NCBI GenBank assembly: GCA_035515795.1
Contig: DATJAY010000002.1
Coordinates: forward strand, 124,001-188,000
DNA length: 64,000 nucleotides
Direction of reading: 5' to 3'
DNA from: Candidatus Acidiferrales bacterium
GTDB lineage: Bacteria > Bacteroidota > Ignavibacteria > Kryptoniales > JAKASW01
The notes under the pieces were generated by a model. That model had not been told where the DNA came from. It saw only the letters and a program-made list of their open reading frames with translations, and did not search any database. A program made the translations under genes and the position numbers. Shown here piece by piece: positions 1 through 5,955 of this stretch (positions within the stretch are counted from its first letter, which is position 1; the number at the start of each line of letters is the position of its first letter).

Positions 1-1331
1 TGATATCATCAGAGGCAGTATTGAAATCGGAGATCTCTTATTACGACCAGCTCGAATCGGAGGAGGCAGTGAATCAGAACAGGTATTCATTTTTGTTCCA
101 CTCTGACAGTCTCCAGAACGACATCTTCTACAGAGATACAGTTAATCGTGGATATGACAATGACCTTAGGATCAAGACGTTAGAGTTCAGCTCGTCTTAC
201 GACATGCAGATGCTTCCTATCTACGGCATAAAGGCGGGAGCGAGCTATCAGCGGATCTTTTATTACCAGGATCAAGTAAATGAGCAAACCATCGCGGAGT
301 TTACCAACAACGGCAACCAGTACCCGGACACATCATACACGGTCCGCGGCGAAAATAGTATCTCTAACGAATTCGGCAGCATAGACGCGCAGTCATTTAA
401 AGTTGCCGGATATCTTGAGAACATATTCCAGATCGGGGAACAGACGATCCTCAATGTCGGAGGCAGGGTTGACTATTTCGATATCGATAAGGACCTGACA
501 TGGAGTCCGCGAATAAATCTCGCGTACAAGATGACTACCGACCTTACGCTTCGTGGGGCGTGGGGATACTACTATCAATCGCCGGTTTACGAGCAACTCG
601 AGTACTCGACTCCGTCGGATACCAATACAAAGTCGCAGCTCGCGATCCATTACGTGATCGGTGGAGACTACAGGATCATCTCCGACGAGGAAGACCGTGA
701 TTTCCTGACCCTGAAGGTACAATTATATCATAAGACATACAGCGATCTTATTTCATCAACTGTCTCACCCTCAGGGAGAGTGTATTATTCGAGGAAGAAC
801 GATGCGATGGGCAGAGCATCCGGCGCGGATTTATTTTTGATGTACTCGATCCCGGGATTCTCCGGATGGATAAGCTACAGTTACCTCAAAGCGGATCAGA
901 AGCTGACACTGAACGATACGTTGGGTTATTACTTCCCGAGAAACACCGATCAGCGCCACACGCTCGCCATAGTTGCCGACATCGATCTTGGAAAGGCATG
1001 GAGCATGAACGTCAGGGCTGTTTACGGCAGCGGGTATCCGTATACTCCGATGATCGCCGTTTACAACCAAACATATGATACGTGGACGTGGGAATTAGGA
1101 AATCCAAACTCGGCTTACTTGCCGGCTTATAAACGGATCGATGCCAGAGTAACCAAAGACTTTACACTCTTCGATTGTGCCTCTTCGGTATTTCTCGATG
1201 TGAGCAATCTTTTTGACTTCACAAATGTCCAATCGTATGATTACGGATTTGACAATAACGGATATCCGCAGATCCGCGCGGAGAAATTGTTTCCCACGCT
1301 GCCGTCGCTGGGATTCTCCGTGAAGTTCTGA
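1..1331 (+). CDS. TonB-dependent receptor, C-terminal part (5' end outside window)
   Basis: The reading frame is open from the first bases of the window, so the N-terminal plug domain lies upstream and only about 440 residues of the outer-membrane beta-barrel are seen. The protein shows alternating aromatic/polar strands, several TonB-receptor-like stretches (GGRVDYFD; SPRINLAYKMTTDLTLRGAWGYYYQSP region), and ends in Phe after GFSVKF, the usual C-terminal signal for BAM-dependent outer-membrane insertion. TonB receptors import siderophores, vitamins or oligosaccharides using the proton-motive force; the substrate cannot be told from this fragment. A strong hairpin follows the gene, and a membrane LytTR regulator lies 195 bases downstream. 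No frameshift is seen. Confidence 0.88.
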   Translation, partial: ISSEAVLKSEISYYDQLESEEAVNQNRYSFLFHSDSLQNDIFYRDTVNRGYDNDLRIKTLEFSSSYDMQMLPIYGIKAGASYQRIFYYQDQVNEQTIAEFTNNGNQYPDTSYTVRGENSISNEFGSIDAQSFKVAGYLENIFQIGEQTILNVGGRVDYFDIDKDLTWSPRINLAYKMTTDLTLRGAWGYYYQSPVYEQLEYSTPSDTNTKSQLAIHYVIGGDYRIISDEEDRDFLTLKVQLYHKTYSDLISSTVSPSGRVYYSRKNDAMGRASGADLFLMYSIPGFSGWISYSYLKADQKLTLNDTLGYYFPRNTDQRHTLAIVADIDLGKAWSMNVRAVYGSGYPYTPMIAVYNQTYDTWTWELGNPNSAYLPAYKRIDARVTKDFTLFDCASSVFLDVSNLFDFTNVQSYDYGFDNNGYPQIRAEKLFPTLPSLGFSVKF

Positions 1332-1341
1332 GCAAGCGATC

Positions 1342-1384
1342 GTGCGAAGGCTGCAAAGCTGGAGCAGAGCTACCTTCGCAAGGT
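1342..1384. repeat. Intergenic inverted-repeat element, copy A
   Basis: A degenerate left arm (gtgcgaagg) is separated by about 20 bases (containing ctggagcagagct) from a well-conserved right arm TACCTTCGCAAGGTA. The same arms and a similar spacer recur at 3890-3935, 5842-5888 and, as a half element, at 6746-6775. The arms are complementary to each other, so the element can fold into a hairpin. It lies just behind the TonB receptor stop codon. Confidence 0.7.
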
Positions 1385-1391
1385 AACCGTC

Positions 1392-3881: not shown

Positions 3882-3889
3882 AGCCGGCC

Positions 3890-3935
3890 ACCTTGCGAAG
3901 GTGTCTGAGCGAGGGGATAGTTACCTTCGCAAGGT
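3890..3935. repeat. Intergenic inverted-repeat element, copy B
   Basis: Perfect 13-base arms ACCTTGCGAAGGT (3890-3902) and ACCTTCGCAAGGT (3923-3935) enclose a 20-base spacer (gtctgagcgaggggatagtt). It is the best-preserved copy of the family and sits between two convergent genes, where the hairpin could also help end transcription from both sides, although there is no T tract. Confidence 0.75.
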
Positions 3936-3960
3936 TTCAATACAACCTATAGCCTATTTC

Positions 3961-4800
3961 TTACTGATTGGTATGCTGGGCTAAGTAAGAAGTAATCTGC
4001 GCTCCGGCGTCGTAATCATAGGCAACAAGCTCTCCGCCGGCCTCTTTGAAATATCGAGTCCAGAAATTCTTGATGTTATCTACCTGGACATTACTCTTGC
4101 CGGTTCTTCCATTTACGTATATGACGCATCCGTGCAGATCCGGGATCCTGTTTTCGGCTCGTAGTTTCCCGATGACGGAATCTGCCTGCGCATCGGTGCA
4201 TCCCTGGTCACCGGCAAATGATGTCTCGCTCGATTCCTGGATCATGTCGGAAAATAGGATGATGACATTTGTGGAAACGATCTTCTTCTTTCCGGTGATG
4301 AACCTTTCGACGCCGCCCCAGAATGTCTCGGCCTCGTTGTGCTCCTGAAGTACCGCGGCCTGTTCAATTGCGGAAAAGATATCAGAGTAGTAGGTATATT
4401 TCTCACGAATAGTTTTTTGTCGAAGAAGTTCAGATGCGACTTCTTTTCCGGTCTGATCCGCAAATTGCCTCAACCTCATGTCCAGGCTGTCTTTCGCATG
4501 CGCATAGCCGTCGGTGCTGAACGAAAATTTCTTTTCTGCCAGGTCTTCGTAAACCAGTTTGACAGCTACGGTTTTTGCACCCTCATCGATAGGAAGAACA
4601 ACCAACCTGTCTTTCTCTCTCAGCCGCTTCAAGATATCGGAGCTGATGATCTCTATATACCGGTGTAGTGTCTGCTCCGACAGACTTCCCGAGTAATCGA
4701 TGAGACAAATGCAGTTCATCCTTTGACGGGTTCCCGTATTGCATCCTCCCGCCGCGAGCAAGACAACGATCGAAAGGATTAGACCAATTCTCTTGTTCAT
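3961..4800 (-). CDS. Lipoprotein with von Willebrand factor A (VWA) domain
   Basis: 279 residues. A lipoprotein signal peptide ends LLAAGGC with Cys20 as the lipidated residue. The mature protein opens directly into a VWA fold: hydrophobic strand CICLID followed by the metal-ion-dependent adhesion site DYSGS (Asp35, Ser37, Ser39), then later strands RLVVLPI and NVIILFSDMIQ, whose Asp fits the third MIDAS position. The protein is therefore probably a membrane-tethered periplasmic or surface protein that binds a partner through a divalent cation. It is the second gene of a minus-strand pair, 17 bases after the coiled-coil membrane protein gene at 4818-5780. I do not recognise a characterised family for the pair. 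Confidence 0.8.
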   Translation of the reverse strand: MNKRIGLILSIVVLLAAGGCNTGTRQRMNCICLIDYSGSLSEQTLHRYIEIISSDILKRLREKDRLVVLPIDEGAKTVAVKLVYEDLAEKKFSFSTDGYAHAKDSLDMRLRQFADQTGKEVASELLRQKTIREKYTYYSDIFSAIEQAAVLQEHNEAETFWGGVERFITGKKKIVSTNVIILFSDMIQESSETSFAGDQGCTDAQADSVIGKLRAENRIPDLHGCVIYVNGRTGKSNVQVDNIKNFWTRYFKEAGGELVAYDYDAGAQITSYLAQHTNQ

Positions 4801-4817
4801 TGGATTGACTCCTTTCT

Positions 4818-5780
4818 CTACGCGCTTGCGGTTTTAGCCGGCAATTCCAGCTGCCCCAGTATGGCACCGTACCGCCGATCGGCCTCACTCTTAAAATTAT
4901 TGAACTCATCATAAAATTGGCCGGCGACGTTCTCGCTCATTCCTCTCCGCAGGTTATAATATTCTTTGTAAGACCGGAAATCGTTGAACCGATTCCACGC
5001 CTCGTTGAGTCTGACATTATAATAGTCTTCAAGCCGCTGCATGACAATTTTAATCTGTCGATCGACGGTGTCCCATGTGCGTTTGGCAACATTGTGTTTG
5101 CGAGTGTACTTATACGAATCGTAGACGTGGAGGAAGTCCCAGCTGAGACCCCCGGCGATGAGCGGCAACACCATGGAGAGAATGATAAAACCGAAATACA
5201 GGAGACCTCCCGTATGGCCGCCTTCGATGTCACGGGCGCGGGTTTCGGATACTCCTGCAATAGCAATCTCAACACCCACGAAAAGCACCGTCCAGAGAAC
5301 AACCATCAATATCGAACGCGGCTTCGATTCCGGATCGCTGTGCTTTCGAACGGGCATGATAGCCTCCATGAACCGCTCGGCCGAGGCGATCGCTCCCAAT
5401 GTCAATACAATTCCGATCAACCATCTTAGGAGTGAAAGTCCTAAGTCTTCACCGCTGATAAAGACGAGTGTGGAAAAATAATTCAGGAGTCCTTCGGTTA
5501 TTAAGATACCCATCACCAGGAAGGTACTGATTCTGATTTTTCTGCGGGCACTGAAGAACTCGTTATCCGATAAGAGATCGGCAGCGTCGACTTTATCGAG
5601 ATAAGACTTCGTGGCGTCGAGATCCCGCTGCATCTCCTGAATCCTTTGCCGCATTGAAGTGGATTTCTTCTTGACGTTGTCGATGAGTGCGCTCAGACAC
5701 CGTTCTGCGAACCTCTTGAGACCGTTGGGGTTTTTGAGGTCGGTTGAGTAAGCGCTGCGATAGTGTATGCCCTTGAACAT
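4818..5780 (-). CDS. Coiled-coil, four-helix membrane protein of unknown function
   Basis: 320 residues without a signal peptide. Residues 1 to about 75 are charged and helical (IDNVKKKSTSMRQRIQEMQ), likely a coiled coil. About four hydrophobic segments follow (STFLVMGILITEGLLNYF; LLRWLIGIVLTLGAIASA; ILMVVLWTVLFVGVEIAIAG; LLYFGFIILSMVLPLIAGG), then a long soluble C-terminal helical tail rich in aromatic and charged residues (DRQIKIVMQRLEDYYNVRL). The layout, with helical cytoplasmic ends around a membrane core, suggests a scaffold or transducer rather than an enzyme. It is the first gene of a two-gene unit with the VWA lipoprotein and has a GGAG-type site (gaaggagaacgtc) before its ATG. No known family recognised. 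Confidence 0.75.
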   Translation of the reverse strand: MFKGIHYRSAYSTDLKNPNGLKRFAERCLSALIDNVKKKSTSMRQRIQEMQRDLDATKSYLDKVDAADLLSDNEFFSARRKIRISTFLVMGILITEGLLNYFSTLVFISGEDLGLSLLRWLIGIVLTLGAIASAERFMEAIMPVRKHSDPESKPRSILMVVLWTVLFVGVEIAIAGVSETRARDIEGGHTGGLLYFGFIILSMVLPLIAGGLSWDFLHVYDSYKYTRKHNVAKRTWDTVDRQIKIVMQRLEDYYNVRLNEAWNRFNDFRSYKEYYNLRRGMSENVAGQFYDEFNNFKSEADRRYGAILGQLELPAKTASA

Positions 5781-5841
5781 GACGTTCTCCTTCTGACAGT
5801 TTAGAAAGTATACTTCGCAGTGATAAGAAAGTCAAGCGTCT

Positions 5842-5888
5842 ACCTTGCGAAGGTTCCTGGAGCCGAGGCGGAGTTACCTTCGCAAGCT
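5842..5888. repeat. Intergenic inverted-repeat element, copy C
   Basis: Left arm ACCTTGCGAAGGT (5842-5854), spacer tcctggagccgaggcggagtt, right arm ACCTTCGCAAGCT (5876-5888, one mismatch). It lies between the start of the coiled-coil membrane protein gene and the end of the DoxX-like gene, both on the minus strand. Confidence 0.72.
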
Positions 5889-5955
5889 AGCAAAGCTCCA
5901 CCACATCGACGCGTGTAGGCGCCCGATCTTCTCAGGACTTTTGCATAAGTGAATA

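What the first reader, a model, noticed from the sequence alone, without database searches (positions are those of the whole stretch)
3961..5780. Two-gene unit: coiled-coil membrane protein plus VWA lipoprotein
The 320-residue protein has cytoplasmic coiled-coil ends around about four membrane helices; 17 bases behind it is a lipoprotein whose mature part is a VWA domain with an intact MIDAS (DYSGS, Asp35/Ser37/Ser39). VWA domains bind partners through a metal ion, so the pair could link an extracytoplasmic adhesion event to a cytoplasmic helical module. I do not recognise either partner as a named system. The gene spacing is seen in the sequence; the shared function is inference.
Basis: partly seen in the sequence, partly recalled or inferred. 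Interest (0 to 1): 0.6.

Follow-up and report, generated by a model that had tools for sequence, protein, structure and literature searches.

The report
Paired membrane and periplasmic VWA proteins
Two neighbouring genes encode a four-helix membrane protein and a metal-binding protein outside the inner membrane that are found together in at least seven bacterial phyla, often inside type III CRISPR antiviral loci, so they probably form a small membrane switch used in defence, although this particular copy stands alone.

Summary
On the minus strand, 4818-5780 encodes a 320-aa protein with four membrane helices and long helical cytoplasmic ends; 17 nt later, 3961-4800 encodes a VWA lipoprotein with a complete MIDAS. 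Neither reaches a Pfam, NCBIfam, PADLOC or PHROGs family. The "no named system" claim holds; the adhesion reading is unsupported. The two are an obligate pair: a profile of the membrane protein finds nine strong loci in 391 class genomes, all nine with the VWA gene directly downstream; all 21 distinct core VWA homologues examined have the same four-helix gene directly upstream, against 1 of 160 background gene pairs. About half (10 of 21) lie in or beside CRISPR loci, mostly type III (Cas10, RAMPs, Cas6, RT-Cas1, CARF, arrays). In the window's own clade, three of six copies have a csx3-type gene next door, in one case in the order csx3, TM, VWA, cas10. The window copy belongs to the sister, stand-alone branch: no array in the window, no Cas1 or Cas10 in its genome. 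Best explanation: a membrane output module repeatedly adopted by type III CRISPR and other signalling systems. Mechanism is inferred. A 2023 survey noted CRISPR-linked vWA/TM genes in passing.

The parts
4818..5780 (-). Gene 1: 320-aa four-helix inner-membrane protein with long helical cytoplasmic N- and C-terminal parts
   Evidence: the 4-TM partners of the two main clades are homologous by hhalign, Prob 97.8, E 8e-13
5463..5519 (-). TM1 (residues 88-106), contains E96 (codon 5493-5495), acidic in 21 of 21 core homologues
5388..5444 (-). TM2 (residues 113-131)
5256..5312 (-). TM3 (residues 157-175)
5154..5210 (-). TM4 (residues 191-209)
5238..5240 (-). R181, invariant in 21 of 21 core homologues, near the predicted periplasmic end of TM3
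5785..5792 (-). Shine-Dalgarno-like site of gene 1 (AAGGAGAA)
   Evidence: Read directly from sequence
3961..4800 (-). Gene 2: 279-aa VWA-domain lipoprotein
4741..4800 (-). Lipoprotein signal peptide with lipobox, Cys20
   Evidence: N-terminal signal-like segments in the homologues listed, most with a lipobox Cys
4684..4698 (-). MIDAS motif 1 (DYSGS, residues 35-39)
4384..4386 (-). S139, position of the MIDAS Thr (T or S in 21 of 21)
4246..4248 (-). MIDAS Asp185 in the SDM motif
4048..4065 (-). Family-defining FWxxYF motif (residues 246-251)
   Evidence: also kept in the distant 5-6 helix clade
4809..4815 (-). Shine-Dalgarno-like AAAGGAG of gene 2, inside the 17-nt intergenic gap 4801-4817
   Evidence: Read directly from sequence

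Best explanation
The pair is one module: an inner-membrane protein (N-in, C-in, four helices, long cytoplasmic helical stalks) and a periplasm-facing VWA protein that docks on it through its metal site. Intracellular alarm signals reach the cytoplasmic helices; the change passes through the four helices (with a conserved acid in TM1 and an Arg at the outer end of TM3) and is gated or anchored by the VWA protein, giving a membrane output such as permeability change and growth arrest. Type III CRISPR (Cas10, Csx3), TerY-P-type kinase/phosphatase sets and receiver-domain proteins have each adopted it; the window copy is a stand-alone accessory unit with an unknown input. SHOWN: obligate pairing, architecture, MIDAS conservation, distribution, CRISPR linkage in part of the family. 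INFERRED: physical complex, direction of signal, permeability output, antiviral role of the window copy.
For: Obligate pair: TM profile, 9 of 9 strong loci next to VWA; VWA loci with the 4-TM gene upstream (background 1 of 160); partner distances correlate, Mantel r 0.86, 0 of 5000 permutations (expected for linked genes, so it shows no partner swapping rather than function). CRISPR linkage: RAMPs and CARF, RT-Cas1, Cas6, RAMPs, arrays, Csx3, Cas10 with a GGDD motif directly after the pair. In 12 pair-bearing genomes, 4 of 15 pair loci lie within about 10 kb of a Cas10 gene, where about 0.5% is expected from 8 Cas10 hits in about 41 Mb. Window's clade: 6 rows, support 100/99, three with a csx3-type gene adjacent. 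Other inputs: TerY-like VWA, PP2C-like, kinase, REC, TCAD9. Accessory: absent from 12 congeners.
Against: The window pair, G087 (its 60-63% relative) and L062 show no cas genes in the neighbourhoods examined, and the window genome has no Cas1 or Cas10 by profile. The TM protein carries no recognisable nucleotide-sensing domain; its structure model is weak and matches nothing in the PDB. CRISPR linkage needs six changes on the tree, so it is a frequent association, not a defining trait. No complex could be modelled.
Confidence: 0.5

Rival explanations
1. Outside-in sensor: the VWA lipoprotein binds an extracytoplasmic partner or senses envelope damage and the four-helix protein passes this to the cytoplasm.
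For: Periplasm-facing VWA with complete, conserved MIDAS; long cytoplasmic helices; receiver-domain and kinase/phosphatase neighbours in two relatives.
Against: The most frequent neighbours are type III CRISPR genes, which sense RNA inside the cell; no adhesin or cell-contact genes recur in the neighbourhoods read.
Confidence: 0.2
2. Housekeeping or envelope-maintenance pair (for example membrane-protein assembly or stress response) that only hitch-hikes in defence islands.
For: Stand-alone copies exist, including the window's; the distant 5-6 helix clade has an OmpA/glycine-zipper lipoprotein gene upstream, suggesting cell-wall anchoring.
Against: Patchy accessory distribution (4 of 100 and 11 of 391 genomes); in G250 and G221 the pair is in line with csx3 with a 1-nt gap or a 4-nt overlap and, in G250, directly before cas10, tighter than island hitch-hiking.
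Confidence: 0.22
3. Two unrelated genes that happen to be adjacent.
For: None beyond the lack of annotation.
Against: Adjacency in all distinct core loci across phyla; 9 of 9 strong TM-profile loci paired.
Confidence: 0.01

Closest known systems
CRISPR-associated vWA systems with transmembrane, kinase or phosphatase genes (UAS-7, UAS-87, UAS-91 and others; Altae-Tran 2023, PMC10910872)
   Same: vWA and transmembrane genes linked to CRISPR loci; the same survey lists (p)ppGpp hydrolase plus RelA systems, which resemble the CARF-RelA and HD genes in G250
   Different: Mentioned in passing in the main text, without architecture, pairing, periplasmic location, Csx3 linkage or CRISPR-free copies; the supplement could not be read, so identity with these clusters is untested
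Type III CRISPR membrane effectors Cam1, Csx23, CorA, Cam3 (PMC10808066, PMC11229360)
   Same: Membrane proteins encoded in type III loci, some without a CARF domain; membrane output shown for Cam1
   Different: The passages read describe no VWA partner; the pair shows no CARF, SAVED or CorA match and many copies are outside CRISPR loci
TerY-P triad (TerY-like vWA, PP2C, kinase; described in PMC11090510)
   Same: One relative (L011) lies directly beside such a set; uses a vWA protein
   Different: The TerY-like vWA there is a separate gene detected by Pfam; the pair's VWA is exported and paired with a 4-TM protein
vWA-MoxR-VMAP ternary systems (PMC7159879)
   Same: vWA in conflict systems; a TCAD9 protein lies near one relative (L051)
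   Different: No MoxR or VMAP gene recognised beside the pairs examined; different architecture
Integrin I / VWF A domains
   Same: VWA fold and MIDAS
   Different: Only fold-level similarity, 9-17% identity

Membership tests
VWA domain superfamily | Alternating alpha/beta VWA fold | tested here: met
   Model pLDDT 77, pTM 0.75; Foldseek to integrin I and VWF A1, E 2.5e-5
VWA domain superfamily | MIDAS DxSxS...T/S...D | tested here: met
   D35, S37, S39, S139, D185; kept in 21 of 21 with S/T at 39 and 139
VWA domain superfamily | Match to a curated VWA profile | tested here: not met
   No Pfam VWA match at E<1; a diagnostic aid rather than a defining trait, so it marks a divergent member
Type III CRISPR ancillary membrane effector | Encoded in a type III CRISPR locus | tested here: not met
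   Window copy: no array in window, no Cas1 or Cas10 in genome. Met for relatives in G250, G168 and G063
Type III CRISPR ancillary membrane effector | Recognisable second-messenger-binding domain (CARF or SAVED) | tested here: not met
   None in window proteins or L061 proteins
Type III CRISPR ancillary membrane effector | Membrane depolarisation or growth arrest on activation | not testable with these tools
   Needs experiment
SLATT 2TM effectors | Match to SLATT profiles | tested here: not met
   No SLATT match in the Pfam scan; four, not two, helices
TerY-P triad | PP2C and kinase genes adjacent | tested here: not met
   Window neighbours include an amidohydrolase and a DoxX-like gene; met only beside relative L011
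vWA-MoxR-VMAP ternary system | MoxR AAA ATPase and VMAP genes adjacent | tested here: not met
   None among the window neighbours scanned

The most novel reading that the evidence does not exclude
A two-protein relay that carries the type III CRISPR alarm (Cas10 messenger, tuned by the adjacent Csx3-type gene) across the inner membrane to a metal-dependent VWA protein in the periplasm, i.e. a CRISPR output with an extracytoplasmic component, of which the window copy is a CRISPR-independent sister.
Probability: 0.3. Interest if true: 0.8.

Novelty: new variant of a known kind. Interest (0 to 1): 0.6.

Why it matters
It defines an unnamed, widely spread pair with clear signatures (acidic TM1 residue, Arg after TM3, MIDAS plus SDM and FWxxYF in the partner) that no profile library used here recognises, and it points to a periplasmic partner for a CRISPR-linked membrane protein. 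That makes a concrete question testable: whether type III CRISPR signalling can act through a two-part membrane and periplasm module. It also shows the module outside CRISPR contexts, so annotation by neighbourhood alone would miss copies such as this one.

Tried and rejected
Close-relative scan of genome contigs with the TM protein alone found nothing; an alignment-based search was needed. Plasmid tblastn with the window proteins and the viral-contig scan were empty; phage tblastn with a relative's VWA was empty; a TM-alignment viral scan was not possible. Fold search of the TM model gave no credible match and was discarded because the model is weak. PDB sequence search gave only coiled-coil-type chance hits for the TM family. 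The direct repeats flanking the pair were considered as cassette borders and rejected: copies also occur in other intergenic gaps and at several places in congener G007. Empty-site comparison in congeners failed because the region is not syntenic. Five weak TM-profile hits (E 1e-3 to 1e-6) were treated as coiled-coil noise without follow-up. Three papers on earlier CRISPR-associated protein surveys were not held.

Full report
Observation. Gene 1 (4818-5780) is a 320-aa membrane protein; gene 2 (3961-4800) follows after 17 nt with its own Shine-Dalgarno-like site in the gap. Hydropathy gives four membrane segments; charge distribution puts both long ends in the cytoplasm. Gene 2 has a lipobox at Cys20 and a VWA fold by prediction (pLDDT 77) that matches integrin I and VWF A1 domains. 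Pfam does not see the VWA domain, and PADLOC, NCBIfam and PHROGs have no model for either window protein.

An obligate pair. Neither gene occurs in 12 congeners, but both occur side by side in G087, 63% and 60% identical. Three distant VWA hits, one of them elsewhere in the window's own genome (contig C11), also have a four-helix gene directly upstream. A profile of the VWA protein finds the family in 11 of 391 class genomes and 18 of 395 phylum genomes, and in 17 named contigs from several phyla. A profile of the membrane proteins, used independently, gives nine strong loci in the class and all nine are the pair. All 21 distinct core pairs share four helices with N-terminal parts of 80-140 residues and C-terminal parts of 104-161; only 1 of 160 other close gene pairs in the same loci has such an upstream gene. 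The membrane partners of the two main clades are homologous (hhalign Prob 97.8, E 8e-13). A more distant clade with mostly 5-6 helices (Arcobacter, Aeromonas, Caballeronia, family f37) has a homologous VWA (Prob 99.5, E 1e-22), a partially matching membrane protein and, in several loci, an OmpA/glycine-zipper lipoprotein gene before it (by sequence appearance also).

Conserved features. In the core VWA proteins D35, S37, D185, M186 and the FW of FWxxYF are invariant, S39 is S or T and residue 139 is T or S in all, so the MIDAS is under strong constraint. In the membrane proteins residue 96 in TM1 is Glu or Asp in 21 of 21 and R181 is invariant. These suggest a charged element within or at the edge of the membrane; that it forms a pore or gate is inference.

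Neighbourhoods. Ten of 21 core loci are in or next to CRISPR or CRISPR-type (CARF) loci, nine of them independent: G063 (RAMP and CARF genes, Cas10 7 kb away, and Cas6 beside the near-identical L041 pair), G168 (RT-Cas1, Cas6, RAMPs, array, Cas10 4 kb away), G165 (RT-Cas1, array), G170 (RT-Cas1, array), a Bryobacteraceae contig (array, Cas1), a Nitrospirota contig (CARF-HD protein, no array seen), G221 C95 (Csx3-AAA, array), G619 and two near-identical genomes (array; Csx3-type AAA gene recognised by motif; Cas10 about 10 kb away in G619), and G250, which has one pair on each side of a single locus. In G250 the order is csx3-AAA, TM, VWA, cas10 (with GGDD), several RAMP-sized genes (identity by size and position only), CARF-RelA, a Cas2-sized gene, RT-Cas1 and a 59-repeat array. 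In 12 pair-bearing genomes 4 of 15 pair loci lie within about 10 kb of Cas10, while 8 Cas10 hits in about 41 Mb predict about 0.5%; this estimate ignores clustering of accessory genes in islands. Other relatives lie beside a TerY-like VWA, PP2C-like and kinase set with receiver-domain genes (G017), receiver-domain proteins (own genome C11) or TCAD9.

Where the window copy fits. On the VWA tree it is in a six-member clade (support 100/99) that splits into a Csx3/CRISPR-linked half (99/94) and a half with the window, G087 and a copy with a sigma-54 activator neighbour (96/84), in which no cas gene was seen. The window genome has no Cas1 or Cas10 by profile. CRISPR linkage needs six changes on the tree (only two are forced by well-supported branches), so the pair looks like a module that is repeatedly plugged into signalling systems. 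Nothing at the window locus identifies its input.

Mechanism and its limits. The anatomy (cytoplasmic helices, four membrane helices, exported metal-site protein) and the company it keeps fit a membrane output driven from inside the cell. What is shown is pairing, topology by sequence, MIDAS conservation and genomic association. That the two proteins bind each other, that the membrane protein changes permeability, and that the window copy is antiviral are inferences. The membrane model is low confidence and no complex could be predicted here.

Prior knowledge. Altae-Tran et al. [quoted passage not shown] the supplement listing them was not readable here, so some of these pairs may be among their clusters. 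A word search of the 2024 survey of type III effectors (PMC11229360) found no mention of VWA. I therefore rate this a new variant of a known kind rather than categorically new.

Noticed in passing
window 1331-1385, 3882-3936, 5840-5890, about 6746: Roughly 50-bp imperfect palindromic repeat (ACCTTGCGAAGGT...ACCTTCGCAAGGT), whole or in part, in successive intergenic gaps; also at several places in congener G007, so a dispersed REP-like element, possibly serving as terminator.
   Followed up: partly
L073 10101-11351; L052 2060-4399 and 7520-9115: The pair co-occurs in two distant loci with CARF proteins and RelA/SpoT-type domains (CARF-RelA fusion in G250; CARF-HD plus CYTH-RelA in a Nitrospirota contig).
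   Followed up: partly
L054 4567-8558, L066 4230-8146, L127 2397-6384, L128 2244-6324: Distant 5-6 helix relatives appear to form a three-gene set (OmpA/glycine-zipper lipoprotein, TM protein, VWA protein) in Campylobacterota, Bacteroidota-type f37, Gamma- and Betaproteobacteria; the Arcobacter TM protein ends in zinc-ribbon-like CxxC motifs.
   Followed up: partly
L095 5756-18351 (window genome contig C11): Second pair in the same genome sits behind a 1181-aa protein without any family match and two receiver-domain-type proteins; one of these resembles a gene near the G017 pair by eye.
   Followed up: partly
L042 4563-4850, L047 134-454, L052 4656-4955: Small 2-3 helix membrane proteins directly upstream of the pair in Nitrospirota loci; possible extra component.
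   Followed up: no
L057 5291-7831, L074 1516-3969: HerA/TrwB-like ATPase genes of about 820-850 aa near two CRISPR-linked pairs.
   Followed up: no
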